Origin: an uncultured Lachnospiraceae bacterium
GTDB taxonomy: Bacteria; Bacillota; Clostridia; Lachnospirales; Lachnospiraceae
Assembly: GCA_902776305.1 (NCBI GenBank)
Contig: CACYPS010000018.1
Location: 1 to 64,000, forward strand
Length of the DNA stretch: 64,000 nucleotides
Direction of reading: 5' to 3'
This document shows, piece after piece, positions 25,769 to 44,469 of this stretch; the stretch's first letter is position 1; each line of letters opens with the position of its first letter. Position numbers and translations under genes: made by a program. The notes below the pieces were generated by a model. The model saw only the letters and a program-made list of their open reading frames with translations, was not told the origin of the DNA and did no database searches.

Positions 25769-25808
25769 GAAACCGTCTATGTTAACCGTGATATGAGGGA
25801 GAGTGCAT

Positions 25809-28631: not shown

Positions 28632-28786
28632 TAGCATCATAGTATGCAGGAACTTGATTGCATACTGAATATACGGGACTGCTGCATACAGGCAATTCAT
28701 GCTGTGGGCCGGAACGGATTTCGTTCCGTGCAGATAAGGTTTGAATGCTGCGTTACAGCAGTCTTCCTTTATGTTAATATGAATGT
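28632..28786. other. Palindrome-rich intergenic stretch before the glycan/lasso-like locus
   Basis: Several nested inverted segments are visible: GGAACG/CGTTCC around GATTT (about 28709-28728) inside GACTGCTG/CAGCAGTC (about 28677-28764). A 58-codon frame runs through it but has no ribosome binding site. It is probably another repeat-type element and may host the promoter of the downstream locus. Confidence 0.45.
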
Positions 28787-28837
28787 AGGACAGGATCGTG
28801 GGAGTGCGTAAGCACGGAACAATCCGTAATCGACTTT
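28787..28837 (+). repeat. Dispersed repeat family B, copy 2
   Basis: It shares GGGAGTGCGTAAG and ACAATCCGTAATCGACT with the copy at 17281-17328, in the same orientation. It ends 15 bp upstream of the first glycosyltransferase gene. Confidence 0.75.
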
Positions 28838-28852
28838 TGGCGACATTATCAT

Positions 28853-29971
28853 ATGAATAAAAGAAAAATGAGAGTCCTACTCGTCTCCGCAAAAGTGAGG
28901 GCGGGAGGAGAAGCCGCGCATGTTACCGCGCTGGCAAAAGAATTTATAAAAAAAGGCATAGATGTATCCCTTCTCTCCACAGATCCGACGGGGGGGATGA
29001 TGGCAGGCATTATTCCTGAGGATAAGCTTTTTTTCACGGAGTTCCGCAATCACAACCCGCTTCAGACAGCGATGAATACGGCCGCGATCCGGAAAGTCCT
29101 CTCGGAGCACGCATTTGATATCATTCACTGTCACGGCAGAGACAATGCATTTGCTGTCAGAATGGCAGGTCCGAAACAGCCGTATGTCTATACGTGCCAC
29201 TCCATGTCGGTGCAGACCGATTTTATGCATCGCATGTTGAACTCGACAGGAGACGCCGCGATTGCTGTTTCCGGGGATACAAAGGAGTTCATGATTCGCG
29301 AGCTGAAGATACCGGAAGAAAAGATCACCGTGATAGAGAACGGCGTAGACCCGACGCAGCTTCGGAAGCTGACCGAAGGTGAAAAGCGCTGGTTGTATAC
29401 AAATTATCTTATACCGGAAGGAAAGATCGTCGCTGCGATTCACGGGAGAATCGATCCGAGGAAAAACCATATTATGATCGGAAAAGCACTCGCAAATCTT
29501 CCGGAAGATGAGAGGTCGAAATTCGTGATATTGTGCTCCGGTATCAGGGAGGTACCCGGATATGATCCGCTGGTTTCTCAGCTGAGAGAGCTTGGCGTGC
29601 TTCAGCAGTTCAGATTCACCGGGTGGACCGAGCCGAGAAATATTCTCGGCTGTGCGGATCTGCTTTTAGGTCCAAGTCAGACAGAAAGCTTCATGATGTC
29701 AGCCCTCGAAGGGTTTTTTATGGATATTCCGGTCATACGTTCCAAAACAGGAGGCTATTCCGAAATGAAGGATCTGTGCATCGGTATAGATGCCGATGAT
29801 CTGAAAGGATGGACGGAAATTCTTCACAGGGTAGCTGTCCGGGGGACAGATGATATGAAACCGATGGTCGACACGGCACATTCGGAGGCGCTCAGGCGGT
29901 TTACGTCTGAAGCGATGGCGGCTAAAGTATACCGGGTCTATCGGGAGGTCCTGAGAGGCCGGGGCAGGTAA
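28853..29971 (+). CDS. Family 4 glycosyltransferase (GT-B fold)
   Basis: Protein of 372 aa. A Rossmann start VLLVSAKVRAGGEAAHV is followed by ENGVDPTQL and, in the C-terminal domain, AAIHGRIDPRKNH and a GPSQTESFMMSALEG segment holding the retaining-GT E-x7-E type motif. It likely adds a sugar from a nucleotide donor to a lipid-linked glycan. No clear ribosome binding site precedes the ATG at 28853; an internal ATG at residue 6 is an alternative. It is the first gene of a tightly packed locus running to about 43 kb. Confidence 0.85.
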   Translation: MNKRKMRVLLVSAKVRAGGEAAHVTALAKEFIKKGIDVSLLSTDPTGGMMAGIIPEDKLFFTEFRNHNPLQTAMNTAAIRKVLSEHAFDIIHCHGRDNAFAVRMAGPKQPYVYTCHSMSVQTDFMHRMLNSTGDAAIAVSGDTKEFMIRELKIPEEKITVIENGVDPTQLRKLTEGEKRWLYTNYLIPEGKIVAAIHGRIDPRKNHIMIGKALANLPEDERSKFVILCSGIREVPGYDPLVSQLRELGVLQQFRFTGWTEPRNILGCADLLLGPSQTESFMMSALEGFFMDIPVIRSKTGGYSEMKDLCIGIDADDLKGWTEILHRVAVRGTDDMKPMVDTAHSEALRRFTSEAMAAKVYRVYREVLRGRGR

Positions 29972-30028: not shown

Positions 30029-31138
30029 ATGAAGTATATAGCCAGGGAGACGGCATTCAGAGAAAATGAGAAGCGAACAGCCGGAGCAAAAGCCAGAGTC
30101 GATATCGACAGGATCTGCACAGAGCAGCTTGGCTATACTCCTGTTGACATTGTATTCGATACAGCCAGATTTGAGGACCGAAATATTCTCGGACAGCTGG
30201 GAGAACACAGTGAAGCTTTACATGAGTGGGAAAGGAAGACAGCCCATCTTAAAAAAGGCGATCTGTTGCTCATCCAGTTCCCGCCTGTGAATCACAGTCT
30301 GATGCTTAGTAGACAGCTCAGTCGGTTGAAAGCCGAAGGAGTCTATCTCGTCGCTATTCTGCACGATGTGGAAATTCTGCGCGGCGCCAAGAGGAAGAAT
30401 AAAAGCATCAAGAACCGCATGAGAAAGCACTTTGAGGAACAGTTATGTCTGGGTCATTTTGACCGCATAGTGGTCCACAACAAGGCCATGAAGGAAGCAG
30501 TAGCCGACCTGTGTGGCATTCCTGCGGGAAAGATGCGGAGTCTCGGCCTGTTCGATTATCTCTGCGGGGAAACGCGGAGCAGAGAGTTCGGTCGGGGCGT
30601 CGCCGTTGCCGGAAATCTGAGACCGGACAAGTCGGGTTACGCGTATCAGCTTCCGGGAAATATGAGGTGGAATCTGTACGGAATCCAGTTTTCCGGAAAG
30701 GCATTCCTGCCCGGAGATGAGACGGATCCGAAAAGCCCCGGAGTATACTATCATGGATCGTTCCTGGCGGATGAGATTGCGGACAGGATCGACGGGAGTT
30801 TCGGGCTGGTCTGGGACGGAGCCTCCATCGACACCTGCGAAGGTGTTTTCGGGGAGTATTTACGGTATAATAATCCCCATAAAACTTCCCTGTATCTTGC
30901 TGCGGGAATGCCGGTCATCGTCTGGAAAGAGGCAGCGATAGCGGGATATATTTTGAAGGAAAACTGCGGGATTGCAGTCGAATCGATTGCGATTATCCCA
31001 AAGATACTTGAAGAAATGTCTGACGAAGAGTACCATATACTTGCGCAAAACGCCGAAAAGGTCGGTAGAAGACTTCGGCGGGGAGATTACACACGAAAGG
31101 TTTTGAGCGGGATTGAGAGCGAAATCTTATCTGTATGA
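30029..31138 (+). CDS. Glycosyltransferase, probably Gtf3/galactofuranosyltransferase-like
   Basis: Protein of 369 aa. The overall plan (DLLLIQFPPVNHS, then VAILHDVEILRG, then a C-terminal nucleotide-binding half with YHGSFLADEIADRI and NNPHKTSLYLAAGMPV) resembles the GT-B galactofuranosyl or glucosyltransferase 3 group of surface glycan loci. No membrane helix. It lies 57 bp after the GT4 gene and overlaps the next gene. The group assignment is by motif recall only; the donor sugar is unknown. Confidence 0.65.
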   Translation: MKYIARETAFRENEKRTAGAKARVDIDRICTEQLGYTPVDIVFDTARFEDRNILGQLGEHSEALHEWERKTAHLKKGDLLLIQFPPVNHSLMLSRQLSRLKAEGVYLVAILHDVEILRGAKRKNKSIKNRMRKHFEEQLCLGHFDRIVVHNKAMKEAVADLCGIPAGKMRSLGLFDYLCGETRSREFGRGVAVAGNLRPDKSGYAYQLPGNMRWNLYGIQFSGKAFLPGDETDPKSPGVYYHGSFLADEIADRIDGSFGLVWDGASIDTCEGVFGEYLRYNNPHKTSLYLAAGMPVIVWKEAAIAGYILKENCGIAVESIAIIPKILEEMSDEEYHILAQNAEKVGRRLRRGDYTRKVLSGIESEILSV

Positions 31139-32423
31139 TAATAGTAAATATTCGATGATGATCACACCGTCGGAGTTCATATTCTATCTGGGAGTAGGGG
31201 CGTATTTTACACTCATGTTCCTCAGCACGACGATGTTTGCGGATATCCTGCCTCTGTCGAATCATACTCTGAGAAATGCCGTCCGATTCACTTGCTACGG
31301 ATTTATAATAGTGAAGATGATGCTGGCCGAAAAATTCACGATCAAAAGAATTGCGGTCTATGTGGCTATTGCTTTGCCCATCCTTATGTGTTATAGGGCT
31401 ACGGGCTATCTTTATGAACTTGATATGTTCATGCTCATCGTCGGGGCTCGCGGATTCAAGGCGAATCGAATTGTCAGTATGTATTTCTTTATGAGTCTTT
31501 TGCTAATCGCTGTAACACTGATCGCACTGGCAGCGGGAGTGATCGAGAATCGTACCTTTACCAGAACGGACAGCGATGTCATCCGAAATTCAGTAGGCTT
31601 CATATACCCTACAGACTTCGGCGCCAGAATCTTTTATACGATCCTTGCGTTCTGTTTAATGGTCGGTAAACGCTACAATCTTGCAATGTTAGCTGTCTTT
31701 TGTGTGATTTCCGCCCTGTTGACAATTTTCAGCGACGCCCGTCTGGATGCTGCACTGATCGTCATAGTGGGAATATTGTTTTACATCAATGCGAAGACCA
31801 GGTTCTTCAGGCGAAAGTGGATCGAGAGAATACTGATTATATCCGTTCCGTTTTTCTTTTTCCTGTCATATTTCGTGACGATGTCTTACAAGAAAGGGCC
31901 TTTCTTCACTTTCCTCGACAGGATCCTGAGCAAGCGTCTTATGTACGGATACTATAATGTATGGTATACCGGAATTCATCCGTTCGGACGCTACATCTAC
32001 CAGCAGGGACACGGCGCACTGAATTACAGTGCGTGGGCCGGATACAACTTTGTAGACTGCGGATATCTTCAGGCACTCCTGCAGTACGGCTATATTCTGA
32101 TGTTCTTCGTGTTGCTCATGTTCGTGCTGATCACTTATACGGCTATTCGGCGAGGACAGCATCACCTCGCGATCATCATTTTCATGATAGGACTTACGAC
32201 CTGCGTAGATCATCATTTTCTTGAGTTCTGGTATGATCCGTTCCCTCTGCTCATATTTTCCGTTATCCCGTATGCTCCGGGTTACAGGAAAATGAGTGCC
32301 GAAAAAGTTGAAGAACCGTCTGCTGAAGCAGAACAGGTCTATAAAGAAAAGCCTGCCCCGAAGGGCCTTTCACACAGTCATGATGTATGGGGCCAGCTGA
32401 ATATGATACAAAAAAGATATTGA
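31113..32423 (+). CDS. O-antigen polymerase/ligase-like membrane protein
   Basis: Protein of 436 aa with about ten hydrophobic helices and a larger loop near residues 270-320, the layout of Wzy/WaaL-type proteins that polymerise or ligate lipid-linked glycans outside the membrane. No stronger signature can be read. The start is a TTG overlapping the previous gene by 26 bp; an ATG at 31155 is an alternative. The C-terminal about 45 residues are hydrophilic and cytoplasmic. Context (glycosyltransferases, LicD) supports a role in making a surface polysaccharide. Confidence 0.65.
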   Translation: MRAKSYLYDNSKYSMMITPSEFIFYLGVGAYFTLMFLSTTMFADILPLSNHTLRNAVRFTCYGFIIVKMMLAEKFTIKRIAVYVAIALPILMCYRATGYLYELDMFMLIVGARGFKANRIVSMYFFMSLLLIAVTLIALAAGVIENRTFTRTDSDVIRNSVGFIYPTDFGARIFYTILAFCLMVGKRYNLAMLAVFCVISALLTIFSDARLDAALIVIVGILFYINAKTRFFRRKWIERILIISVPFFFFLSYFVTMSYKKGPFFTFLDRILSKRLMYGYYNVWYTGIHPFGRYIYQQGHGALNYSAWAGYNFVDCGYLQALLQYGYILMFFVLLMFVLITYTAIRRGQHHLAIIIFMIGLTTCVDHHFLEFWYDPFPLLIFSVIPYAPGYRKMSAEKVEEPSAEAEQVYKEKPAPKGLSHSHDVWGQLNMIQKRY

Positions 32424-32452
32424 TAGCGGATGCATGTTCCGCGGGAGGATTT

Positions 32453-33325
32453 ATGTATAACGATGAAGTACAGAAAACTCTGAGAAAGCTGCAGCTGGCT
32501 GAGCTCAACATCATAAAACTGTTCATGAAGATCTGTGAGAAGGAACATCTGCGATACTTTATGATCGGCGGAACCATGCTCGGCGCGATCAGGCACAAAG
32601 GTTTTATTCCATGGGACGATGATGTCGATATCGGAATGCCCAGAGAGGATTATGATAGGCTGTTCGAACTTCTGAAGGACGGAACATACCTGCCGGAGAA
32701 CTTCGAATATCTGAATTATAAGATCAAAGACGATTATAAGAGATATTTCAGCCGGATCGTCGATAACCGTGTTCTGGTTTACAACGCATCCGGAGGAGAG
32801 GAGATCGTCGAAGCTGCATGGATAGACATTTTCCCGCTTGACGGATCCCCGAATAATTACATATTGAGGAATCTGCGCTACACATGGGTCATGTGGAAAC
32901 GTCTCAGATACCACCTCTCTCTGATGGATACCATGGTCAACCTGAACAGGCCCGGCCGCCCGCTCTATCAGAGACTGATCATCGGATTCGCGAAACGGGT
33001 TCCGATCGGGCGCGGACGAGACTGTAAACAGATTCTCGACAATATCGATAAGGAACTCAAAAAGTATCGCTGGGCAGGCAGCTCCACGGCTGCCAATGTA
33101 TTCGGTGCCTACGCTCACCGGGAGATGGTCCCGAAGGATGTGTGGGGCAGCAAACTGGCGCTGTATCCTTTTGAGGATGTTGAACTGCCGGGACCCGAGA
33201 ACTACGATGCTTTCCTCAGCCGGTTCTACGGAGAGTATATGACACCGCCGCCGGAGGGTAACAGGGATAAGCACAATATTCGAAAAATCGAGTTCCTGTC
33301 GCCGGAAAATGGAGAGGATACATAA
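32453..33325 (+). CDS. LicD-family phosphotransferase
   Basis: Protein of 290 aa. The LicD/fukutin nucleotidyltransferase fold is shown by GGTMLGAIRHKGFIPWDDD (about 42-60), with the metal-binding Asp cluster, followed by VDIGMPREDY. The family moves phosphocholine, ribitol-phosphate or related groups from CDP carriers to glycans. The frame opens 66 bp earlier, but GGGAGGA right before 32453 decides the start. With TarI/TarJ-like genes at 47-48.6 kb, ribitol-5-phosphate transfer is a reasonable inference. Confidence 0.88.
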   Translation: MYNDEVQKTLRKLQLAELNIIKLFMKICEKEHLRYFMIGGTMLGAIRHKGFIPWDDDVDIGMPREDYDRLFELLKDGTYLPENFEYLNYKIKDDYKRYFSRIVDNRVLVYNASGGEEIVEAAWIDIFPLDGSPNNYILRNLRYTWVMWKRLRYHLSLMDTMVNLNRPGRPLYQRLIIGFAKRVPIGRGRDCKQILDNIDKELKKYRWAGSSTAANVFGAYAHREMVPKDVWGSKLALYPFEDVELPGPENYDAFLSRFYGEYMTPPPEGNRDKHNIRKIEFLSPENGEDT

Positions 33326-35116
33326 ATGGCAAATGGACTGAGGGAACTCCTCGGCGACCTCATGAAGAAGGACGGAAAACTGTTCATCACGACAATCATT
33401 CTGATGGTCATTTCATCCTTTCTTCAGGGCGTTACAATTCTTATGCTTGTTCCGATCATGAATATTATGGAAGTGGGGGAGGCCGCGGATCTGCCGTTCG
33501 GCCTCTCCCGGTTCCTGTCCTTTCTTCTCAGTCTGCCGTTCGGTTTGAGACTCTTTGTTCTTCTTTTCTGCTTTTTCATTATCATGACGATGCAGGCCGT
33601 TTCCGTCAGGATGGTAAAAGTCAGGTCGATGCAGCTTGCTTCGGGATTTACTGCCGACATGAGAGAAGAGTACTATGATGAGCTCATGAGCAGCAGCTGG
33701 GAGAGATATTCATCCGATAATCAGTCTGTTCATACGGATGCTCTGATCACACAGATTCCCCGATTAACGACGACAATCAATTATTTTATGTCGATGATGA
33801 CAAATGTTGTGACCGCTCTCATCGACCTTATCATAGCGTTTTCCCTGTCTGCTTCTCTTTCGGGATTCGTCATTGTCGTCGGTGGCTTATTCTTCCTGTT
33901 TTTCAGGCGTTTCACAAAGAGATCGGAAACACTAGGTAACAGGCTGAGCAGACAGTATGAGGCTTTCACGGATGAGGTACAGACGCAGCTCTCCGGATTT
34001 AAGGAAATCAGGAGCTACGGCATTGCCGAAGAGGAGTCCCGAAGGTTCAGAGATATAACGGAAACATTCCGGGATCTGATGATTGAGGCTACGGGAAATG
34101 TATCGGCGCCGCGCATGATCTCCACGATAGGGGAGGCTGTTCTTATAGCCATTATCTTCTTCTGCGCTGAGTACTGGCTTCATATCGAGACGTCGAGCAT
34201 GATTGTCGTACTGTATGTCTTTTATCGGCTTTGGCCGCTTCTGCCCGCAACGCAGGAGTACTTGCAGGGCATCAAAGAGACGCTGCCCGCCTACAGAGTC
34301 ATGCAGGATGTGAGAAAAAAGGATTCAGAGGATAGCAGAACGGCTTGCATCCGGAAAATAAAACAGGATAATGCCTCCGATGAAAGTACAGGCGGGAAGG
34401 AAGATACCGGCGATCAGGCGGTGGCGTTTGATCACGTCAGTTTTCGATATAAGGATGCAGCTGCGGACGCTCTGCATGATGTAAGTTTTAAGATCAGGCG
34501 ACATACGATCACTGCCTTCACCGGCCCGTCCGGCGCCGGAAAAAGTACGGTCGTAGACCTTATTCTGGGATTTCTTACGCCATCCGGCGGGAATATTTAC
34601 ATACAGGCAGAAGACGGCGAGGTTGCCTATGTCCCGCAGAGTCCAATGATCCTGACAGCGTCCGTCCGCGAGAACATAGCGCGTTTCCACCCGGGTATTT
34701 CGGACGGGGAGATCGTGGAGGCTCTTGTAAGGACGGAAGCCATGGGCTTTCTTGAGAGAAAGTGTACCGAAGGACAGTCACCGCTCGACCTTCGCATGGG
34801 AGATGACGGAGTCATGTTCTCGGGAGGCGAGGTGCAGAGAATCGTGCTTGCCCGCGCAATTGCCGGTACGCCGGGGTTGCTGATCCTTGATGAAGCCACA
34901 TCGGCGCTGGACTTCGGAAACGAGAAGTTGATCGCCGGGCTGCTTCAAAGGTTGAAGAGCGAGATGACGATTATTCTCGTTGCGCATCGTGTGTCGACAA
35001 TTCAGTCGGCAGATGATATACTCGTCATTGAAAACGGACAGCTTACGGAACAGGGGAGTGCCGGAGAACTTTTGAAGAATCCGGAGAGTTACCTGACTAA
35101 AATGAAGGACGGATAA
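33326..35116 (+). CDS. ABC exporter, fused permease and ATPase (lasso-peptide-exporter-like)
   Basis: Protein of 596 aa. Six transmembrane helices occupy about 1-300. The ATPase domain has Walker A GPSGAGKST (about 396), signature FSGGEVQR, Walker B LLILDEATSALD and the H-loop AHR. There is no N-terminal C39 protease. The start codon directly follows the LicD stop. This is the architecture of lasso peptide D proteins and also of lipid-glycan flippases. In this setting, right before the kinase-B1-B2-cyclase genes, peptide export is favoured, but glycan export cannot be excluded. Confidence 0.85.
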   Translation: MANGLRELLGDLMKKDGKLFITTIILMVISSFLQGVTILMLVPIMNIMEVGEAADLPFGLSRFLSFLLSLPFGLRLFVLLFCFFIIMTMQAVSVRMVKVRSMQLASGFTADMREEYYDELMSSSWERYSSDNQSVHTDALITQIPRLTTTINYFMSMMTNVVTALIDLIIAFSLSASLSGFVIVVGGLFFLFFRRFTKRSETLGNRLSRQYEAFTDEVQTQLSGFKEIRSYGIAEEESRRFRDITETFRDLMIEATGNVSAPRMISTIGEAVLIAIIFFCAEYWLHIETSSMIVVLYVFYRLWPLLPATQEYLQGIKETLPAYRVMQDVRKKDSEDSRTACIRKIKQDNASDESTGGKEDTGDQAVAFDHVSFRYKDAAADALHDVSFKIRRHTITAFTGPSGAGKSTVVDLILGFLTPSGGNIYIQAEDGEVAYVPQSPMILTASVRENIARFHPGISDGEIVEALVRTEAMGFLERKCTEGQSPLDLRMGDDGVMFSGGEVQRIVLARAIAGTPGLLILDEATSALDFGNEKLIAGLLQRLKSEMTIILVAHRVSTIQSADDILVIENGQLTEQGSAGELLKNPESYLTKMKDG

Positions 35117-35119
35117 TGT

Positions 35120-36037
35120 ATGTACCGATACAGAGCTTTTGGCTTCAACATTGAATCAGAGTTTGAAATTGCACAGATGCTGCCGGCGGAGTTTCCCGAT
35201 GACCGGTGTGATGTACACATCCGATATGGGGAAGTCAGTGCGGATATGATTAAGGATCCGCTGCAGACCTATCTCGATGCAAGATTCGGGATAGACGAGA
35301 TGTGGAGCAATCTTGATATCGCTGAGATCTATGTGGGACACGGCAGAGATATCATTGTGAAGCTTGTTCCGGGAAGAGAGGAAGAGGAAGGGCTTCTGCA
35401 GGCATACATTACCGGGCTGGCTTTCGGAGCGATCATGCATCAGAGGAAACAGATACCCATGCACGGGAGCTGTGTTCAGAAAGACGGCAGAGCAGTTCTC
35501 TTTACCGGAGTTTCAGGAGCGGGAAAGTCTTCCATCGCCGCGGAGGCAATCCGGCAGGGTTATCGGTTGGTCACGGATGATGTTACGCCGGTATCGATCC
35601 GGAACGGGTTGGTCGTCGCTGAGCCGTCCTTCCCGCAGCAGAAGCTTTGGGAGGATGCGGTCGAGCGAGGCGGCGTCGAGGATAAGACTGACCACAGGAT
35701 ATATGACGAGAATGACCGGACAAAGTTCGCCATGAATGTAGATGACGCTTTCCTGAACGAGGAGGCGGTCCTGTGCGGTATTATTCAACTGATCCCGAAA
35801 GAAGGAACGAGGAATGGCAGACCGCTGATTGAGGAAGTCACGGGCCTGGAAAGAGCTGTCCTCATGCAGCTCCATACATACAGAAAATATATGCTGGTCG
35901 ACAACGAGAGCAGACAGAGGCATTTTCAGAGCTGCGCTGATATTGCAAAACAATTAAAGATAGCCCACATGTTCCGCTATGAAGACACATCCGAAGCGGA
36001 AATGCTTGCGGCAGCGGAGGAATTTATCAATGAGTGA
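35120..36037 (+). CDS. HPr-kinase-like protein of lasso-peptide type
   Basis: Protein of 305 aa. Residues 1-115 have no clear domain. Walker A GVSGAGKSS (about residue 130) is followed by LVTDDVTPV, the pattern of HprK-related P-loop kinases. In lasso peptide clusters such as paeninodin, a homologue phosphorylates the C-terminal Ser of the precursor. No HPr (ptsH) or other PTS gene is nearby, which argues against carbon regulation. It starts 3 bp after the exporter stop and overlaps the PqqD-like gene by 8 bp. Confidence 0.82.
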   Translation: MYRYRAFGFNIESEFEIAQMLPAEFPDDRCDVHIRYGEVSADMIKDPLQTYLDARFGIDEMWSNLDIAEIYVGHGRDIIVKLVPGREEEEGLLQAYITGLAFGAIMHQRKQIPMHGSCVQKDGRAVLFTGVSGAGKSSIAAEAIRQGYRLVTDDVTPVSIRNGLVVAEPSFPQQKLWEDAVERGGVEDKTDHRIYDENDRTKFAMNVDDAFLNEEAVLCGIIQLIPKEGTRNGRPLIEEVTGLERAVLMQLHTYRKYMLVDNESRQRHFQSCADIAKQLKIAHMFRYEDTSEAEMLAAAEEFINE

Positions 36038-36299
36038 AAAAAAGTATACGAGAAAAGCTGACATCATCACTGCGGACATGGACGGGGAGCTCGTCATGAT
36101 GGATATTACGTCCGGAAAATACTACAATCTCGGCAGGACAGGCGGTACGATCTGGAATCTACTGGAATCACCGAAGACACTGGACGAGCTGGTTGATGCG
36201 CTCACCGATAAGTATGATGTCGACCGCGCGACCTGCAAGGCGCAGGCGGAAGAGTTTATGAAAACAGGACTTGAACACGGCCTGTTCTTTATGGAATAA
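36030..36299 (+). CDS. PqqD-family peptide chaperone (lasso B1-like RRE)
   Basis: Protein of 89 aa. The sequence VMMDITSGKYYNLGRTGGTIWNLLE, here positions about 18-42, is the classic PqqD/RRE winged-helix fold. Such proteins bind the leader of ribosomally made peptides and hand it to the protease. The frame extends 51 bp upstream, but GCGGAGGAA (about 36013-36021) places the start at 36030, inside the end of the kinase gene (translational coupling). Followed 3 bp later by the B2-like gene, exactly the lasso B1-B2 order. Confidence 0.88.
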   Translation: MSEKKYTRKADIITADMDGELVMMDITSGKYYNLGRTGGTIWNLLESPKTLDELVDALTDKYDVDRATCKAQAEEFMKTGLEHGLFFME

Positions 36300-36302
36300 G
36301 AT

Positions 36303-36734
36303 ATGAAAAGTATGTTGAAGTTTATAAGCTACCCGCCCGCACTTAAAAAATTATGCGTGCGGGTTCTTCTGCTTGCAGTGTATTATAAGCTGCTCATTCG
36401 ATTTCGGAAATTCTCCGAGATAGCGGGCAGGCTGGGCAATGCGGGCAGGGTGACTTCCGAAGATCCGGTCCCGGACGGACAGAGGGAATACATTTTGCAG
36501 GTTCGCAGGGCGATCAGAGCGGTCGTTCCGAAACTGCATTTTTCAAATGAATGCCTTGTATGCGCATTCACCGCAAAAAAAATCCTTGGGGATATCCCGT
36601 CGACAGTCTACATGGGCGTCGCGAAAAAGAAAGACGGCGGTATGAAGGCTCACGCATGGACGAGAGTCGGAGACATCATTGTTACAGGTGAGGAGGGGAG
36701 AGAGCGGTTCACGGTCACCGCTACATTTGCATGA
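36303..36734 (+). CDS. Lasso peptide B2-like transglutaminase-fold protease
   Basis: Protein of 143 aa. The C-terminal domain has NECLVCAF with the probable nucleophile Cys84, a VYMGVAKK strand and KAHAWTR with His117; an acidic third residue probably follows in the VGDII strand. This is the leader-peptidase family of lasso biosynthesis. The N-terminal about 45 residues form a helix-rich region also typical of B2. It overlaps the nucleotidyltransferase gene by 4 bp (ATGA). Catalytic residues look intact, so it should be active if a substrate exists. Confidence 0.85.
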   Translation: MKSMLKFISYPPALKKLCVRVLLLAVYYKLLIRFRKFSEIAGRLGNAGRVTSEDPVPDGQREYILQVRRAIRAVVPKLHFSNECLVCAFTAKKILGDIPSTVYMGVAKKKDGGMKAHAWTRVGDIIVTGEEGRERFTVTATFA

Positions 36735-37876
36735 GTATGGATATTTCGAGAGAACAGAGATTTGTCTATTTATGTTCGATTTTTCCGATGCCGAAGAAGT
36801 ATCTGAAGAAGGCGCAGGAAATTTTTAAATCCGGCCTTGATCTGGATGAGGCTGTCAGAATCGCCTATGTCCATCAGGTCTACAGCCTTTTTGCAAAAAA
36901 TCTGAAGGATCATTTTCCGGAGGCCGGCGAAAACGAAGCCGTAAAGACCATGTATGTGGCAGCGAACAGGAACCGCTTTGATTCTATGAAGCAGACGGGC
37001 GAGCTTGTCAGGCTTTATCGGGTCTTCACGGACAGAGGCGTCAGAACGGTGCCTCTGAAAGGCGTCCTTCTGTCGAAAATGCTTTACGATGATCCGACGT
37101 TCCGATATGCGACGGATATTGATCTGCTGATTCGCCGCGAAGATTTTGACAGGGCGAGGGAAATCCTCGCGGAGCAGGGTTATACGTCCAACAAGGAGTA
37201 TGTTTCGACCGCAAAACAAATGGAGGTCTACGAGAGCAAATTCCACGATTATGACTTTGAGTCGAAGGACGGCACTAAGCTCGAACTGCACTGGAGAGTG
37301 GCGGACATCAAAGCCGCAGAGATCCTGACATGTGATAATGCAGACTCGACGGTTTCATTCTTCGGCCAGGAACTGCCGACGTACACTCCGGAAGAGTGGC
37401 TCATCTACCTTGCTTATCACGGTGTTCACCATGGCTATATGTGGATGAAATGGCTGACGGATTTCGATACCCTGGCAAGGCACGCAAGTGTAGACAGGAA
37501 GGCAGCCATGGAACTTGCCGCGGAGATGGGACTTGACTGGGCGCTTCGGGCGTCTTATGCGATGGCTTATCTGGTGTCTGGGGGGGACGAAAACGCAGTA
37601 TCCGTGAGCCGTCTTACTGAGGAGATGGCCGGCGTCCTCACGAAATCGAACGGACAGAAAGACGATGTCTTCATCGCGTATCGCTCGTTCCTTGATACCG
37701 AGCTCGAGCGCAGAGGACTGCTCACCGACAAGGAGAAAACCCGAAGAATAGACCCCTCGGAGAAAGATTTTGAGACGTTCCATTTCAGCGATCGGTTTTT
37801 CTTCCTCTATTATGTTGTGAGAGGTCCCTACAAATTGTACCGGGTTCTGAAAGGAAAGATTTTTCCGGACAAATAA
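36731..37876 (+). CDS. Nucleotidyltransferase family protein (NTP_transf_5-like)
   Basis: Protein of 381 aa. VPLKGVLLSKMLYDDP followed by YATDIDLLI shows the nucleotidyltransferase G/S and D-x-D metal motifs at about 106-135. Members of this family (PF14907) accompany some Firmicutes lasso clusters with an HPr-like kinase, where they are thought to modify the peptide or its phosphate. No substrate can be read here. Coupled to the B2 gene by overlap. Confidence 0.82.
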   Translation: MSMDISREQRFVYLCSIFPMPKKYLKKAQEIFKSGLDLDEAVRIAYVHQVYSLFAKNLKDHFPEAGENEAVKTMYVAANRNRFDSMKQTGELVRLYRVFTDRGVRTVPLKGVLLSKMLYDDPTFRYATDIDLLIRREDFDRAREILAEQGYTSNKEYVSTAKQMEVYESKFHDYDFESKDGTKLELHWRVADIKAAEILTCDNADSTVSFFGQELPTYTPEEWLIYLAYHGVHHGYMWMKWLTDFDTLARHASVDRKAAMELAAEMGLDWALRASYAMAYLVSGGDENAVSVSRLTEEMAGVLTKSNGQKDDVFIAYRSFLDTELERRGLLTDKEKTRRIDPSEKDFETFHFSDRFFFLYYVVRGPYKLYRVLKGKIFPDK

Positions 37877-37907
37877 TTTTACCGGCCAAATGAAAGATTT
37901 GTAATAC

Positions 37908-38717
37908 ATGAAAGATTCACGTAAAGAGATAGGAATATGGCCTGCAAGGGTCCTCTTTGTTCTTTATCTGCTGTTTTTTGCAACATATACAATTTTTATG
38001 AGAACTGTCGGTCCCAGAAGATGGAATCTCATGCCTTTCTGGGAGCTCCGGTATTCTCTTGCCGGCGGACTGGCCACGTTTCAGTTCCTGATCATCAATA
38101 TTTTGCTCTGTATCCCGATGGGGTATTTCGGTGCCGCCGCATTCAGGAATACAAAAAAGTGGAAGATCGTTCTGCTTATCGCGTGTTATTCAACAACGAT
38201 CGAACTCATTCAGCTCATTACAGCAAGAGGATTGTGCGAATTCGACGACGTCTTTAATAATACTCTGGGCGGTGCGATCGGCATACTCTGCTTCTACGGG
38301 CCGCTTGAGATCTTTGACGCCATGGCAGTAACGATTGTGTACGGTGCGGTAATGATCATCTTGGAATTCAGGCAGTCCGGGAGTTTTTCCTTCGGACGGG
38401 TGCCCGGGGTTCTTACCAAGACCTATGTCCTCTACATACCTGCCCACGCTGTTATATCCTATTACATTTTCAGACTTTTTGACATGTATGGAGATCTGCG
38501 CGGTAACAGAGGTGTGAAGGCAGCGGCGGTCATCATGCTCGCAAATATGCTGAGCGTGCTTTCGAAGTTTCTGGTACAGTATTTCACTGCCTATCATTTT
38601 TCGGCCCCGACGCTATACTATCTGATCGGATTTCTTCTGCAGTGTTTACTGACCATGTATGTGAGGAAAAATTACATCTGCAGGACTCCGGATAAGAGTC
38701 ACGGAGGGAATATATGA
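37908..38717 (+). CDS. VanZ-like membrane protein
   Basis: Protein of 269 aa with about seven hydrophobic helices. The N-terminal half has NLMPFWELR, STTIELIQLITARG and EFDDVFNNTLGG, the VanZ pattern. VanZ proteins are poorly understood envelope proteins linked to glycopeptide or lipoglycopeptide tolerance. The C-terminal three helices are not VanZ-like. It overlaps the next gene by 4 bp, so it is co-translated with the cyclase-like gene. Confidence 0.8.
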   Translation: MKDSRKEIGIWPARVLFVLYLLFFATYTIFMRTVGPRRWNLMPFWELRYSLAGGLATFQFLIINILLCIPMGYFGAAAFRNTKKWKIVLLIACYSTTIELIQLITARGLCEFDDVFNNTLGGAIGILCFYGPLEIFDAMAVTIVYGAVMIILEFRQSGSFSFGRVPGVLTKTYVLYIPAHAVISYYIFRLFDMYGDLRGNRGVKAAAVIMLANMLSVLSKFLVQYFTAYHFSAPTLYYLIGFLLQCLLTMYVRKNYICRTPDKSHGGNI

Positions 38718-40618
38718 GTGCTATTTATGTGATGATCCATGACACACATTCGGATTTTCGAACAATCCGGCCCTACGGCAGGATCCTGCACGACGGCCTT
38801 ACGTCGTACGGTCTCGGAGGAGCTTCGGAACCGTGTGAAGGGGAGACGAGTTTTGAGAGCGGGGATTGCAGGATCATTATGGGAAGTATCCAGAATAACG
38901 CCCATGCGGGCGTTCCCGCAACGTCCTGTGTCGTTGAGACCGATCAGCACCTTGCTGTCTGCGATGCGATGATCTATAACAGAAAAAGCTTTCCGGGGCA
39001 GGATATGCTGAGCGACGGTGAGCTGCTTGTAAGAACATATGAGAGGGAGGGACTTTCAGGGCTTCGCAGTCTGAGCGGAGATTTTGCTGCCGTCCTGATC
39101 GATAAGGAAAACGGGCGGATCTTTCTCATCCGTGATCACATGGGTATAAGACCGCTCTATATCATGCAATCGAAGCATTATGTGACAATTTGCACGGATT
39201 ACAGGCCTTTTTTCAGGCTGCCGGAAAATCAGATCACGATCAATGAGGAGCGCCTCTATGAGTATCTCACAATGGGAATCGTGGCGAGCAGAACAGAGAC
39301 GCTCTTTGCAAATATTCTCAAATCCGAGGCCGGTGCAGTCACCCGTATGACCCCGAATGGGAAAATTATAGCATCCGATACATACTGGACCCCCGGCATG
39401 CGGAAAGTGCCTGAGGACAAATGGGATGTACAGTATGAGAAAATATACGCTAAACTGATTCGGGATGCAGTGAGGAACCGGGTGGACGCTGTAGGAGGAG
39501 AGGCAATCGGTGCTGAATTCTCCGGCGGTCTTGACTCGGGAATCATTGTCTCACTGCTCGATGAATATGCACAGGAAAACGGTCACGAACTTCCTTTGCT
39601 TGCCACCTGGTCGCCTTCCGAGGAGGAATATCCGATCCGTGAGCAGAGGAATGAAGTGATCCGCGACGAGCGTGAAGTTATAAAGAAGTTCTGCGGGGAC
39701 AAGGGAAATTCCTGCATCTACAGACCTCGCTGCGATGCAGAGGATCCGGAAGTATATCTGAAAAATACAGAGAGAAAAGATATCTGCGAGTTCGACGCCG
39801 ATATTATCATGTACACGATGAAAGCCCTGTCGGGGAGAGGCATAAGGACTGTATTTTCCGGCTGGGGCGGAGATGAGGCCGCGACGATGCGGTTCGGTCC
39901 CTCCGGTCTTCTGGAATCCGGTGAGTTAAGGGCATTTCTTCATGAAGCTTCTTATGCTGCAGGTAAGAATCCGAAGAAGTATCTCGGATTCATCAAGCGG
40001 GCTCTAACGGCAGTTCGTGACAGTCACGCTCCGTGGGACGGCCGTGCGGTGAACGGATGGCAGTTCAACATCGCAAAAGATGAATATGCACACAGGATCC
40101 TCGGCAAAAGAGAAAAGAAGTATAACTACTTTGGATGGAATCCTGTCGAAAATCTGCTTACGGGAGGTATGGAGTCCAGGACGGCAATTGCCGCAGCTTC
40201 GGGCGCCGATATGGGGATGGTCTACATGTTTCCGATGCTTGACCCGCTCCTTATCGATTATGCTTTGAATGTCCCGCGTCGCCTATATATGAGGGACGGC
40301 AGAAGAAGGCTGCTCCCGCAGAAGGCGCTGGAGGATATCGTGCCCGGTTATCTTACGAAGTTCAGCGGGGAATCCAATGTCGAAAAACTCGACACCGGAC
40401 GTATGGATTTCTATTATGAGGTCGCCGAGGAGACACAGAGCCGGACGGATGAGATTATCTTAGCAAGACTTGACAGAGAGCTGTTCGCTGAATATGTTGA
40501 TTTCGATGCGATTGAGCGCAATCTGTTACGTGCGGATAATACTGTTGAGAGAAATGTCCTGCGATCCATTATGAGAACGCTCTATAAGATGCAGCTTCTT
40601 TTGAAAGAGTGCAGGTAA
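38714..40618 (+). CDS. Asparagine-synthetase-like enzyme, probable lasso macrolactam cyclase
   Basis: Protein of 634 aa. The N-terminal Ntn-hydrolase-like domain (about 1-210) begins Met-Ser-Ala, so the Cys2 needed for glutaminase activity is absent. The ATP-pyrophosphatase domain has FSGGLDSG (about 268-275) and FSGWGGDEAA. Loss of Cys2 with an intact synthetase site is what lasso cyclases and beta-lactam synthetases show: they activate an acid side chain as an adenylate and use an internal amine. Length and context with B1/B2 support a lasso C protein. A glycan amidotransferase role is the main alternative. Confidence 0.82.
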   Translation: MSAIYVMIHDTHSDFRTIRPYGRILHDGLTSYGLGGASEPCEGETSFESGDCRIIMGSIQNNAHAGVPATSCVVETDQHLAVCDAMIYNRKSFPGQDMLSDGELLVRTYEREGLSGLRSLSGDFAAVLIDKENGRIFLIRDHMGIRPLYIMQSKHYVTICTDYRPFFRLPENQITINEERLYEYLTMGIVASRTETLFANILKSEAGAVTRMTPNGKIIASDTYWTPGMRKVPEDKWDVQYEKIYAKLIRDAVRNRVDAVGGEAIGAEFSGGLDSGIIVSLLDEYAQENGHELPLLATWSPSEEEYPIREQRNEVIRDEREVIKKFCGDKGNSCIYRPRCDAEDPEVYLKNTERKDICEFDADIIMYTMKALSGRGIRTVFSGWGGDEAATMRFGPSGLLESGELRAFLHEASYAAGKNPKKYLGFIKRALTAVRDSHAPWDGRAVNGWQFNIAKDEYAHRILGKREKKYNYFGWNPVENLLTGGMESRTAIAAASGADMGMVYMFPMLDPLLIDYALNVPRRLYMRDGRRRLLPQKALEDIVPGYLTKFSGESNVEKLDTGRMDFYYEVAEETQSRTDEIILARLDRELFAEYVDFDAIERNLLRADNTVERNVLRSIMRTLYKMQLLLKECR

Positions 40619-40654
40619 TACTTGATAAATGCTTTCCGCAAAGGAGCAGAGAGA

Positions 40655-42988
40655 TTGAAATCTAATAATAAGAAACTGTATTATGAACTGAATAATTATT
40701 ATCTGATCGCATTTGTACTGAATTTTGTCGCCGGTTTCTTTTCATTTGCATGGACAATCATGACACAGGGCGGTCTGTTTTCGCTGGCAGGTGATTTTAA
40801 TGCGCAGCAGATCACATTTGCAATGGCTGCCAACGACGCTATCAAATCCGGGAATATCATCTATGACTGGTCGCTCGATCTCGGATCGAACTTCATCGGC
40901 GGTATGATGTTTTATATCCTGGGCAACCCGTCGTTCTGGCTTTCCATGCTGTTCCCGTCCGGGATGTTCATGTATGTCGTCGGATGGATCTATATGCTGA
41001 AATATGCGGTCGCCGGACTTACATCATATGCGTATCTGGAGCGGTACACTCGTGACAAAAAGAATGCTCTGATCGGCTCGATGCTCTATGCGTTCTGCGG
41101 ATATATGGCGGAGGATCTGTTGTTCTATCACTTCCATGACGTCGTCGCTCTTTTTCCGCTGCTCATGCTCACGTTCGACGGCCTTGTGCTCGAGAAGAAG
41201 AGAGGACCGTTCATTTTCGCGGTCGCGATTAACGCTCTTGTGAATTACTTTTTTCTGGTCGGCGAGATCATCTTCATGGCGGCATATTACATCCTGAGAT
41301 ATCTCATCCCGGGATTCAATTTCAAGACGCACATCAGGAGACTGCCTCAGATTCTGATCGAAGGTATTCTTGGAGGTATGCTCGGATGTTTCCTGCTCCT
41401 TCCGGCCTTTTTATTCACGATACAGAATCCGAGAGTCGAAGTAGATTATACGGGTTCGACATCACTCGTATACACGGCTGAGCGATATCTGTATATCCTG
41501 AAAGGACTTGTGTTTCCGGGCGAGGTGATGTCACACCAGAGTGCAGTCATTAAGAGTAACTTTTCATCCTGCAACGCCTATATTCCCGTCGTCGGACTGG
41601 TTCTCGTCATCGCGTTTGTCAGAATGAGACCGCGCCACTGGCTGACGAGAATGCTGACATTTTGTCTGGTCTTCGCAGTCGTTCCGATTCTTAACGCTTC
41701 GTTCTCACTGTTCGCCGGGGTTTACTGCCGCTGGTATTATATGGCGGCTCTGATGATGGTACTCGCGTCCGTGATGATTCTGGAGAGATGGCAGGCGGAA
41801 AACACGTCGAGGAGGAAGGTGAATCCGTTCCGAAGCGTGAAAAGACAGATCACGGCAGGGACGATTATCTGGGGAGGGATAACTCTTGCATTCATCCTGT
41901 TCCTCGTATTGGTCAGATGGAACGACACTGAGCCGAGCAAAATCTACCGGATGGATATATTTGTCATCTGGAGTATCGTCTCTCTTGCGGGAACCTTCAT
42001 GACATGGTTCACGCTCTGCTATCTGAAGAAATACCAGAGAACCATCCTGCTTTTTACGATTTATATATGCGCGATTTTTACGACGACTCTGACGATTTAT
42101 CTGTACCAGCAGGCGCACGGTCTGAACGCGGATCAGGTGCATGACAAGATCGTGACCAGCGCACGGCTCGATTATGAGGGCCCGGAATACCGATACAGCA
42201 GCAGAGATAATATTGAAACACTGTGCCATAATCATAAGGCGAGCGCGAATTTCTGCAGCACAGTATCCGGATCTATCTTCAGGTTCTATGAATCGCTCGG
42301 ACTTGAGCGCGATGTGAAGAGTCCGGAAGCTCCGAAAGGGCTCTACAACCTGATTTCGGCAAAATATGATATAACGACGGATCCGAGAGCCGATCAGGAT
42401 CCGATTCAGACGGAGAACGGTAAGTATCGCAGTTACTATGTCTATGAAAACAACAGTATTCCTCCGATCGGTTTTACATACGATACGTATATGACTGCGT
42501 CAGACTTCGAGACGACGTATTCGGATGACAGGGCTATTCTCATGCTGAAGACACTGATCATTCCCGATGACATGGAGGATGTGGTGTCACGAACCCTGAG
42601 ATCTTACGATTCATTCACTGATGGATATGCGACGGAGGAGTACCTGAACGCGATCAGCAGCGCGCACCTAAAAGAGTGTGCGAGGGATGTGTCCGAGACG
42701 ACGTCCACTTACGAATGTACGATTGATGCAGACGCCGACAAGTACGCTTTCTTTTCCATCCCGAATGATTCCGGGTGGAGCGCAACGGTGAACGATGAGC
42801 CCGTTGACATCATGGATATTAACGGCTTTATGGCGGTCCCGGTCAATGAGGGTGAGAACCGGATTCGATTCTTCTATAAGGTGCCGGGGCTTGCGGAGGG
42901 CTGTATGTTGACGGCGGGAGGGGCGATTGCGATATTGCTGTATATATTTGTGGTGCCGTTGGTTTGGGGGCGGAAGAAGAGAAGATGA
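40655..42988 (+). CDS. YfhO-family membrane protein
   Basis: Protein of about 777 aa with about twelve transmembrane helices, a large extracellular region (about 500-740) and a final helix. The layout and segments such as GDFNAQQ and FFSIPNDSGWSATVN (about 710-724) fit the YfhO family, GT-C enzymes that put sugars on lipoteichoic acid or related polymers. The frame opens at a TTG at 40622; a second TTG at 40655 has AAGGAG 8 nt upstream and was preferred, though this is uncertain. Last gene of the plus-strand locus. Confidence 0.78.
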   Translation: MKSNNKKLYYELNNYYLIAFVLNFVAGFFSFAWTIMTQGGLFSLAGDFNAQQITFAMAANDAIKSGNIIYDWSLDLGSNFIGGMMFYILGNPSFWLSMLFPSGMFMYVVGWIYMLKYAVAGLTSYAYLERYTRDKKNALIGSMLYAFCGYMAEDLLFYHFHDVVALFPLLMLTFDGLVLEKKRGPFIFAVAINALVNYFFLVGEIIFMAAYYILRYLIPGFNFKTHIRRLPQILIEGILGGMLGCFLLLPAFLFTIQNPRVEVDYTGSTSLVYTAERYLYILKGLVFPGEVMSHQSAVIKSNFSSCNAYIPVVGLVLVIAFVRMRPRHWLTRMLTFCLVFAVVPILNASFSLFAGVYCRWYYMAALMMVLASVMILERWQAENTSRRKVNPFRSVKRQITAGTIIWGGITLAFILFLVLVRWNDTEPSKIYRMDIFVIWSIVSLAGTFMTWFTLCYLKKYQRTILLFTIYICAIFTTTLTIYLYQQAHGLNADQVHDKIVTSARLDYEGPEYRYSSRDNIETLCHNHKASANFCSTVSGSIFRFYESLGLERDVKSPEAPKGLYNLISAKYDITTDPRADQDPIQTENGKYRSYYVYENNSIPPIGFTYDTYMTASDFETTYSDDRAILMLKTLIIPDDMEDVVSRTLRSYDSFTDGYATEEYLNAISSAHLKECARDVSETTSTYECTIDADADKYAFFSIPNDSGWSATVNDEPVDIMDINGFMAVPVNEGENRIRFFYKVPGLAEGCMLTAGGAIAILLYIFVVPLVWGRKKRR

Positions 42989-43986: not shown

Positions 43987-44469
43987 TCACTCCCTGTTAC
44001 GCTTCGCCCTGTGCAGCTGCCATGCAGAATACACAAAGAGCGATAAGGTGACAGCCGCCATCACGCCCGTCATATCTATACACACATCTATAAAATCACC
44101 CGACCTCAGTGACACGAATGTCTGGTGGAATTCGTCCGTACATGCATACACAAAAGAGACGAGGATACTGTAGAACATGGCTCTCGTCACGATCGTTGAT
44201 GCGCAAAAGGACAGGAGCAGAAGAGTATAGAGTATGGCATATTCATTCATATGGGCGGCCTTGCGGACATAGGGATGAAGCATGTTCGTGAGGTGTTCGG
44301 CATCTTCCTCATCGCCGTCCCGCACGATTTCGATGACATTAACGATCTTCTGTGTGACCCGGAGGGAGAATCCCTGAGACGTAGATGCGACCTGTCCGGA
44401 CATATTGAAGATCATTATCATCCAGATGATTGTCGGCACGTACCAGAAATATGATCTAAGAATTTTCAT
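43987..44469 (-). CDS. VanZ-family protein
   Basis: Protein of 160 aa with four membrane helices. The family hallmarks are all there: RKAAHMNEYAILYTLL, then CTDEFHQTF and RSGDFIDVCIDMTG. This is the compact classical VanZ, unlike the longer one at 37.9 kb. The start at 44469 (AGAGG upstream) overlaps the end of the preceding DUF6056-like gene by 14 bp, so it is translated from the same mRNA. Role unknown, envelope related. Confidence 0.88.
   Translation of the reverse strand: MKILRSYFWYVPTIIWMIMIFNMSGQVASTSQGFSLRVTQKIVNVIEIVRDGDEEDAEHLTNMLHPYVRKAAHMNEYAILYTLLLLSFCASTIVTRAMFYSILVSFVYACTDEFHQTFVSLRSGDFIDVCIDMTGVMAAVTLSLFVYSAWQLHRAKRNRE

What the first reader, a model, noticed from the sequence alone, without database searches (positions are those of the whole stretch)
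33326..40618. Lasso-peptide-type machinery inside a surface-glycan locus
Seen: consecutive, mostly overlapping genes for an ABC exporter, HPr-kinase-like protein, PqqD-like RRE, B2-like protease (Cys84/His117), NTP_transf_5 protein, VanZ-like protein and an asparagine-synthetase-like cyclase. Known: exporter, B1, B2 and C make lasso peptides, and the kinase and nucleotidyltransferase occur in paeninodin-type clusters. Unusual: they are embedded without a break between LicD/glycosyltransferases and YfhO, with VanZ inside the set. A peptide linked to, or acting with, a surface polymer would be new.
Basis: partly seen in the sequence, partly recalled or inferred. Interest (0 to 1): 0.85.

Follow-up and report, generated by a model that had tools for sequence, protein, structure and literature searches.

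The report
Lasso-peptide genes in a glycan cassette
A bacterium related to ruminant-gut species carries the enzymes that make knotted "lasso" peptides inside a gene block for a cell-surface sugar polymer, while two small genes that look like the peptides themselves sit far away on the chromosome; among close relatives the sugar genes, the enzymes and the peptides mostly come and go together, which suggests, but does not prove, that peptide and polymer work together.

Summary
The genes at 33326-40618 are a paeninodin-type lasso-peptide maturation set: RRE (B1) and protease (B2) pass NCBIfam cut-offs, the kinase has the His-Lys-Asp-Asp residues, and the AsnB-like protein groups with precursor-adjacent lasso cyclases, though far below its own model's cut-off. 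Two candidates lie in tandem on another contig of the same genome. All 11 precursors read in five species of the genus share a WxxP leader, Thr(-2), Gly1, Glu9 and a C-terminal Ser. Precursors were found in 5 of 7 genomes with the cyclase and in 0 of 35 without. Glycan and lasso genes form one 11-gene cassette between LCP and YfhO genes: orthologues of its Wzy-like polymerase and of the cyclase occur in the same 7 of 42 genomes, and 3 of 4 block-negative relatives examined have LCP next to YfhO. That paeninodin-like clusters lie in capsule loci is already in print (PMC13381572). New here: the co-inherited cassette, its empty site and the unlinked precursor pair. Peptide joined to polymer is untested. 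Verdict: new variant of a known kind.

The parts
25803..28631 (+). LytR-CpsA-Psr (LCP) protein; left border of the cassette, homologue kept in relatives without the cassette
   Evidence: PF03816 58 bits; homologue directly upstream of YfhO in G319, G338, G320, short and without a Pfam LCP hit in G319 and G338
28853..29971 (+). glycosyltransferase family 4 (GT1); first gene of the cassette
   Evidence: PF13439/PF00534
30029..31138 (+). second glycosyltransferase-like protein (GT2)
   Evidence: PF13439 weak, 24.8 bits, below its cut-off of 28.5; conserved in the block
31113..32423 (+). multi-pass membrane protein, probably Wzy-like polymerase
   Evidence: No Pfam hit. Orthologues (>=39% identity) in the same 7 of 42 genomes as the cyclase. 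AlphaFold model too poor to use, pLDDT 49.5. The name rests on hydrophobic sequence and context
32387..33325 (+). LicD-family phosphotransferase
   Evidence: PF04991 144.6 bits
33326..35116 (+). MsbA-like ABC exporter; probably the lasso D protein, possibly a lipid-linked glycan flippase
   Evidence: PF00005/PF00664. A relative (G302) has both this ABC gene and a Wzx-like flippase gene side by side
35120..36037 (+). HprK-like kinase, predicted to phosphorylate the C-terminal Ser of the precursor
   Evidence: PF07475 38.6 bits; His-Lys-Asp-Asp (H115, K136, D153, D154 by my count) conserved in 10 of 10 aligned
35979..36299 (+). B1: RiPP recognition element (PqqD-like); translation may start at 36030
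   Evidence: NF033536 96.2 bits, cut-off 80. Best solved relative 9x90_B (named PbaB1 in PMC13381572), E 1.9e-15; TbiB1 9.4e-12
36303..36734 (+). B2: leader peptidase (transglutaminase-like), Cys84/His117
   Evidence: NF033537 67.9 bits, cut-off 33; both residues conserved in 10 of 10 aligned
36731..37876 (+). NTP_transf_5 protein, predicted to cap the Ser-phosphate with sugar
   Evidence: PF14907 165.5 bits. Model pLDDT 61.3; no Foldseek match at E<=0.001, best ones ANT/Lnu-type nucleotidyltransferases and FKRP
37908..38717 (+). VanZ-like membrane protein (role unknown; absent from the G317 block)
   Evidence: PF04892 73.2 bits; presence across species
38714..40618 (+). C: lasso macrolactam synthetase (AsnB-like; ATP motif SGGLDSG intact, no N-terminal catalytic Cys); last gene of the cassette
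   Evidence: Best NCBIfam model NF033535 126 bits, cut-off 525 not met; alignment; tree
40622..42988 (+). YfhO-type membrane protein; right border of the cassette, kept in relatives without it
   Evidence: PF09586 218.7 bits; beside LCP in G319, G338, G320

Best explanation
The window carries the maturation half of a paeninodin-type, phosphorylated lasso-peptide system. It is fused into one 11-gene cassette with a Wzy-type surface-glycan pathway, and two precursor genes are encoded in trans at another chromosomal site. Proposed order: B1 binds the WxxPxI leader; the HprK-like kinase phosphorylates the C-terminal Ser; NTP_transf_5 caps the phosphate with a sugar; B2 cuts after Thr-Ala; the AsnB-like cyclase joins Gly1 to Glu9 around the tail; the ABC protein exports the product, which then acts at the cell surface together with the polymer made by GT1, GT2, the Wzy-like protein and LicD. 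Shown here (by sequence): gene content, family assignments, conserved catalytic residues, precursor features, cassette integrity, empty site, co-occurrence. Inferred: every chemical step, the export role and the joint action. The confidence given is for the identity of the system (lasso-type, precursors in trans, one cassette); for the joint action with the polymer alone I would say about 0.5.
For: B1 and B2 pass NCBIfam cut-offs. The cyclase lies in a supported set of 53 of 95 rows (SH-aLRT 97, quick tree), 17 of them with a WxxP precursor ORF within 1.5 kb; three canonical AsnB rows stand apart on a long branch. The precursor profile has only two hits at E<=10 in the own genome (E 0.0015 and 0.0036), both on contig C3. 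They are tandem ORFs with clear ribosome sites. 11 of 11 genus precursors have Thr-2, Gly1, Glu9 and a C-terminal Ser. The precursor site is syntenic in G000, G309, G310, G332 and probably G302. Precursors were found in 5 of 7 cyclase-positive and 0 of 35 cyclase-negative genomes; at the EamA site 4 of 4 block-positive against 0 of 26 block-negative loci have them, 21 of the 26 with at least 700 nt of downstream sequence. Polymerase orthologues are in the same 7 of 42 genomes as the cyclase. Same gene order from LCP to YfhO in five species; empty site LCP-YfhO in three of four block-negative genomes examined. The kinase's four residues and the C-terminal Ser match what PMC9266682 (passages) describes for paeninodin and pseudomycoidin.
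Against: The cyclase scores far below its curated cut-off (126 against 525 bits). The own precursors match lasso_PadeA_fam only below cut-off: type a 12.7 bits against 27; 6 of 11 match at E<=1, best 2.1e-4. No peptide has been detected. Precursors were not found in G317 or G307; both assemblies are incomplete (89% and 64%) and also lack a match to the EamA gene that marks the site. In G302 polymerase and cyclases are on different contigs and B1, B2 and kinase were not searched for, so the cassette is not shown to be whole there. Codon differences between near species are too few for a firm coding test (type a 1 synonymous, 1 non-synonymous; type b 8 and 2; G310/G332 3 and 3, 5 and 4). The promoter-like and terminator-like sites at the precursors are no more numerous than in shuffles would be surprising (4 against a mean of 2.0; 1 against 0.9). 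Co-occurrence counts ignore relatedness.
Confidence: 0.8

Rival explanations
1. Hitch-hiking: an independent secreted lasso peptide (for instance an antimicrobial, with VanZ as possible self-protection) whose genes merely share a variable island with glycan genes. (This rival disputes the joint action, not the lasso identity, so its odds overlap with those of the best explanation.)
For: PMC13381572 (section 12) reports very patchy, transfer-driven distribution of paeninodins in Bacilli. VanZ lies inside the set but is missing in G317. Variable glycan loci often collect unrelated genes (general knowledge).
Against: Gene order from GT1 to the cyclase is kept in five species down to 44% cyclase identity, and polymerase and cyclase never part in 42 genomes. 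The precursors, which are not in the island, still come and go with it.
Confidence: 0.4
2. The product stays linear: a linear polyphosphorylated peptide (LPP) rather than a lasso.
For: LPP clusters share kinase, RRE, NTP transferase and MsbA-like exporter and also lie in capsule loci (PMC13381572, section 6).
Against: LPPs lack a cyclase, use a SipW-like peptidase and have YxxP leaders. Here B2 and a cyclase-like protein are present, the leaders are WxxP, and no signal peptidase is among the cassette genes scanned.
Confidence: 0.04
3. The C3 peptides belong to one of the genome's two radical-SAM/PqqD systems, and the window machinery has another, unseen substrate.
For: The own genome has PqqD domains beside radical SAM genes on C3 (about 107 kb from the precursors) and C65.
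Against: That radical SAM family is absent (E<=1e-30) from G302, G310 and G332, which have the precursors, and present in four genomes without them. The leader matches those lying beside lasso cyclases, and no other candidate to the precursor profile was found in the genome.
Confidence: 0.06

Closest known systems
Paeninodin / pseudomycoidin lasso-peptide clusters (kinases PadeK, PsmK; nucleotidyltransferase-like PsmN)
   Same: Discrete B1 and B2, cyclase, exporter, HprK-like kinase with His-Lys-Asp-Asp, NTP_transf_5-type protein, C-terminal Ser of the precursor, WxxP leader (PMC9266682 passages; PMC13381572 sections 8 and 9).
   Different: Precursors not in the cluster but at a distant syntenic site, as a pair; cluster fused with a Wzy-type glycan pathway; VanZ inside; type-a core with four Cys in the tail (CxCxCxC).
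Capsule-locus paeninodin clusters of Bacilli, e.g. pba of Paenibacillus alginolyticus (PMC13381572)
   Same: Lasso genes inside a surface-polysaccharide locus; the closest solved RRE is PbaB1 (9x90).
   Different: There the precursor is in the cluster and the distribution is described as very patchy; here cassette and distant precursors are gained or lost together within a genus.
Linear polyphosphorylated peptides, LPP (PMC13381572)
   Same: Kinase, RRE, NTP transferase, exporter, capsule locus.
   Different: Here B2 and cyclase are present and leaders are WxxP, not YxxP.
Ruminal Butyrivibrio/Lachnospira lasso clusters (PMC7533575)
   Same: Lachnospiraceae; HPr kinase, PqqD, nucleotidyltransferase and glycosyltransferases nearby (passages).
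   Different: No conserved glycan cassette and no distant precursor reported in the passages seen.

Membership tests
Lasso peptides | Dedicated leader peptidase B2 and RRE B1 | tested here: met
   NF033537 67.9 bits (cut-off 33), NF033536 96.2 bits (cut-off 80); catalytic residues
Lasso peptides | Macrolactam synthetase C (AsnB-like) | tested here: inconclusive
   NF033535 is the best model but 126 bits against a cut-off of 525; the quick tree places it with precursor-adjacent lasso cyclases and away from three canonical AsnB rows
Lasso peptides | Precursor with leader motif, Thr at -2, residue 1 Gly (or Ala, Ser, Cys), Asp/Glu at 7-9 | tested here: met
   11 of 11 genus precursors: Thr-2, Gly1, Glu9; encoded in trans. 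Counting from the residue after would give an 8-residue ring
Lasso peptides | Threaded isopeptide product | not testable with these tools
   needs expression, mass spectrometry and NMR
Paeninodin family | WxxP leader and matching RRE class | tested here: met
   WxxP in all 11; best solved relative 9x90_B
Paeninodin family | HprK-like kinase with His-Lys-Asp-Asp and C-terminal Ser substrate | tested here: met
   (sequence only; activity not tested)
Paeninodin family | Precursor passes NF033524 lasso_PadeA_fam | tested here: not met
   Own type a 12.7 bits, cut-off 27; 6 of 11 at E<=1, best 2.1e-4; no other NCBIfam family matched. So 'paeninodin-type', not a certified member
LPP | SipW-like peptidase, no cyclase, YxxP leader | tested here: not met
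   B2 and cyclase present, WxxP leaders
Wzy-type surface polymer locus | GTs, Wzy polymerase, flippase, LCP ligase | tested here: inconclusive
   GTs, LicD, LCP by Pfam; polymerase by hydrophobic sequence and context only; a Wzx flippase was seen only in G302

The most novel reading that the evidence does not exclude
The lasso peptide is a building block or terminal cap of the surface polymer: the kinase and NTP_transf_5 put a phosphosugar on its C-terminal Ser, and that phosphodiester end is joined to the polymer by the LicD/Wzy/LCP pathway. This would give a lasso-peptide-decorated wall glycan in which the two peptides, one with a CxCxCxC tail, may bind metal or cross-link by disulfides.
Probability: 0.18. 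Interest if true: 0.92.

Novelty: new variant of a known kind. Interest (0 to 1): 0.64.

Why it matters
The role of phosphorylated lasso peptides is unknown, and their presence in capsule loci has so far been a correlation (PMC13381572). Here related species give a natural with/without comparison: one cassette holds the glycan and lasso genes, its empty site is known, and two unlinked precursor genes come and go with it. That makes the question whether these peptides serve the surface polymer directly testable. It also suggests that precursor mining limited to the neighbourhood of the cyclase misses real systems. If the peptide is attached to the polymer, it would be a new class of surface conjugate.

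Tried and rejected
Precursor inside the window: motif scans of small ORFs on both strands, tblastn of the two C3 precursors against the window (best E 0.29), and the 55-aa ORF at 28644-28811. That ORF is not kept as a protein in G309, where the similarity is split between frames; its DNA gives a sub-threshold Rfam match instead. Rejected.

AlphaFold of the polymerase (pLDDT 49.5): not usable. AlphaFold of NTP_transf_5 (pLDDT 61.3) with Foldseek: no match at E<=0.001; only a hint of a nucleotidyltransferase/FKRP-like fold.

Radical-SAM alternative for the precursors: weakened by non-co-occurrence.

Glycan neighbours of other Lachnospiraceae B2 genes: 71 proteins of 150 aa or more within 7 kb of a B2 gene in 12 loci scanned (the first 25 of 64 families are shown). 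Glycosyltransferase, Wzz, Wzy_C, pyruvyl-transferase and Caps_synth hits are among them, but no background set was scanned, so no enrichment is claimed.

No B2 or RRE tree and no tree of the ABC proteins was made. The AsnB tree is of the 'quick' kind, warns of long branches among some rows, and has one canonical row only 40% filled; before building it I left out 11 named loci (copies of loci already in, or fragments) and rows under 480 aa. The EamA tree is a single-gene quick tree; the grouping of G000/G309 with block-negative G319/G331/G338 has support 93, not starred, and starred branches alone force only one change.

The genome-contig scan kept the best 80 of 144 relatives (78 loci), so lists taken from it are partial.
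Full report
WHAT IS THERE. Pfam and NCBIfam support each assignment. B1 passes the lasso RRE model (96.2 bits, cut-off 80) and B2 the lasso B2 model (67.9, cut-off 33). The AsnB-like protein has the lasso cyclase as its best NCBIfam model but only 126 bits against a cut-off of 525. Its N-terminus lacks the catalytic Cys of glutamine-dependent AsnB (that Cys is recalled knowledge), and its ATP motif SGGLDSG is intact. In a quick AsnB tree of 95 rows it sits in a supported set of 53 (SH-aLRT 97), 17 of which have a WxxP precursor ORF within 1.5 kb; the Metabacillus cyclase is in the same set, and three canonical AsnB rows stand apart on a branch of length 2.9. The kinase keeps His, Lys, Asp, Asp and B2 keeps Cys and His in 10 of 10 aligned sequences each. 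The closest solved structure of B1 is 9x90_B, E 1.9e-15, which PMC13381572 (section 8) names PbaB1, the RRE of a paeninodin-like cluster.

THE MISSING PRECURSOR. No precursor-like ORF was found in the window. In a sample of 299 genomes of the family, 9 have a B2 above cut-off, the window's included. I fetched loci for the other eight. Seven of the eight carry one to three small ORFs of the general form MKxWxxPxxxELNIxxTA in the DNA fetched around the lasso genes; the eighth is a 6.1 kb contig. A profile of these ten peptides, run on the window's own genome at E<=10, gives two hits only (E 0.0015 and 0.0036), side by side on contig C3: MERWTAPEIHELNVQETA-GGQSTMPIECECGCHCRGGAS and MERWEIPAIQEMNVEETA-GGHYEDVIENECAHVPFAS. 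Both have a clear ribosome site. A promoter-like site lies upstream of the first and a terminator-like hairpin after the second, but such sites are not rarer in shuffled sequence. They are on another contig than the window. From the contig ends they must be at least about 134 kb from the lasso genes (C3 at 100.5 kb of 228.8 kb; C18 at 33.3 kb of 89.1 kb; my arithmetic).

THE PRECURSOR PAIR IN THE GENUS. Among 42 genomes of the genus, precursors with readable ORFs were found in G000, G309, G310, G332 (two tandem each) and G302 (three, two of them on a contig with a second window-type cyclase), 11 in all. G302 has a fourth, weaker hit without a motif ORF; weak hits in G299, G209 and G312 (E 0.017 to 0.75) also had none. 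All 11 have the WxxP leader, Thr(-2), Gly1, Glu9 and a C-terminal Ser (positions counted by me). C-terminal Ser is the site phosphorylated by PadeK and decorated with hexose through PsmN (PMC9266682, passages). Type a has four Cys as CxCxCxC in the tail, in all four species in which it was seen. The site beside the EamA permease gene is syntenic: the other neighbour is a lipoprotein gene in G000 and G309 and a homologue of a nearby 472-aa gene in G310 and G332; one G302 precursor lies beside the lipoprotein homologue. If the core is counted from the residue after, the ring would be eight; many Lachnospiraceae relatives have Asn or Asp at that first place, so the exact cut is open.

CO-INHERITANCE. 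The window-type cyclase is in 7 of 42 genomes: G000, G302, G307 (fragment), G309, G310, G317, G332. Precursors were found in 5 of those 7 and in 0 of 35 others (hypergeometric 2.5e-5, not corrected for relatedness). The two misses, G317 and G307, are incomplete (89% and 64%) and also lack a match to the EamA gene that marks the site. At the EamA site, 30 of the 33 matching loci were read: the pair is in 4 of 4 block-positive and 0 of 26 block-negative loci, 21 of the latter with at least 700 nt downstream. A radical-SAM family of the genome's two other PqqD systems does not follow the precursors.

ONE CASSETTE WITH THE GLYCAN GENES. The order LCP-GT1-GT2-polymerase-LicD-ABC-kinase-B1-B2-NTP_transf_5-VanZ-cyclase-YfhO is kept in G000, G309, G310, G332 and, without VanZ, G317 (the B1 ORF of G332 was missed and found). 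G307 has the part from an ABC fragment to a cyclase fragment on a 4.5 kb contig and its polymerase on another. G302 has LCP, GT1, GT2, polymerase, LicD, a Wzx-like gene and ABC on one contig and its cyclases on two others, so the whole cassette is not shown there. Orthologues of the Wzy-like polymerase (39% identity or more) occur in exactly the same 7 of 42 genomes as the cyclase; 13 others have only distant paralogues (30% or less). LicD, GT1, GT2 and B2 were not searched genus-wide. I looked at the site in four block-negative genomes. G319, G338 and G320 have an LCP homologue directly followed by YfhO with nothing of the cassette between; in G319 and G338 the LCP homologue is short and without a Pfam LCP domain hit. 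G299 has neither LCP nor YfhO in the 20 kb read. On an EamA gene tree the block-positive G000/G309 group with block-negative G319/G331/G338 (support 93, not starred) and not with G310/G332, which would mean that cassette and precursors, though unlinked, changed together at least twice; starred branches alone force only one change.

MECHANISM. Shown: the parts, their conservation and co-inheritance. Inferred: B1 holds the WxxPxI leader (as in 9x90, PMC13381572 section 8); the kinase phosphorylates the terminal Ser; NTP_transf_5 adds sugar; B2 cuts after Thr-Ala; the cyclase closes Gly1-Glu9; the ABC protein exports. In G302 a Wzx-like flippase gene stands next to the ABC gene, which favours the ABC protein as peptide exporter; in the other species a flippase role cannot be excluded. 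The fold hint for NTP_transf_5 (ANT/Lnu nucleotidyltransferases and FKRP; best E 2e-3, none below 0.001) would fit phosphodiester chemistry but is weak. Why polymer and peptide travel together is the open question: joint action at the surface, covalent attachment, or linked self-protection.

WHAT IS KNOWN. PMC13381572 (sections 6, 8, 9, 12 read) reports paeninodin-like lasso clusters embedded in capsular polysaccharide loci of Bacilli and says that their roles are unknown. PMC7533575 (passages) reports ruminal Lachnospiraceae lasso clusters with kinase, nucleotidyltransferase and glycosyltransferase genes. PMC12971885 (passage) notes an unlinked tailoring enzyme for citrulassin; PMC4289311 (passages) has nothing on distant lasso precursors in what was shown. 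Searches for lasso precursors encoded away from their cluster gave no such case in what I saw: 'orphan precursor' 0 papers, 'trans-encoded' 0 papers, 'in trans'/'precursor gene'/'distant' 10 of 250 listed, 'elsewhere in the genome' 8 of 13 listed. Subscription papers are not covered, so this is not proof of absence. I therefore file this as a new variant of a known kind.

Noticed in passing
window 28655-28832 (+): Sub-threshold match to Rfam RF01699 Clostridiales-1 RNA (33.1 bits, gathering 48, E 0.00058) between LCP and the first cassette gene; DNA partly conserved in G309 and G317. Possibly a leader RNA of the cassette.
   Followed up: partly
L049, L115, L118, L126, L134, L145: Cyclases of two different clades sit in one locus, near a single B1/B2.
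   Followed up: no
L103, L105, L112, L121, L128, L129, L133, L144: Precursor and cyclase without B1/B2 in the DNA held (6.7 to 21.7 kb), so split lasso systems may be common in this family.
   Followed up: no
L003:5690-6208 (G000 contig C59): Transglut_core3 (B2-like) protein, 42 bits, with no recognised lasso gene nearby on its contig.
   Followed up: partly
L059:7500-10177 and L052:7176-8616 (G000 contigs C3, C65): Two further radical-SAM/PqqD RiPP-like systems in the same genome, the C65 one beside ABC exporters.
   Followed up: partly
L075 (G302 contig C176): Two extra precursors on the contig of a second window-type cyclase, so one species seems to have a second copy of the system with precursors in cis.
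   Followed up: partly
L051 and L106: Three related precursor copies in each locus.
   Followed up: no
window 43987-44544 (-): A second VanZ-like gene (PF04892) just outside the cassette; homologues persist in block-negative G319, G338 and G320.
   Followed up: partly
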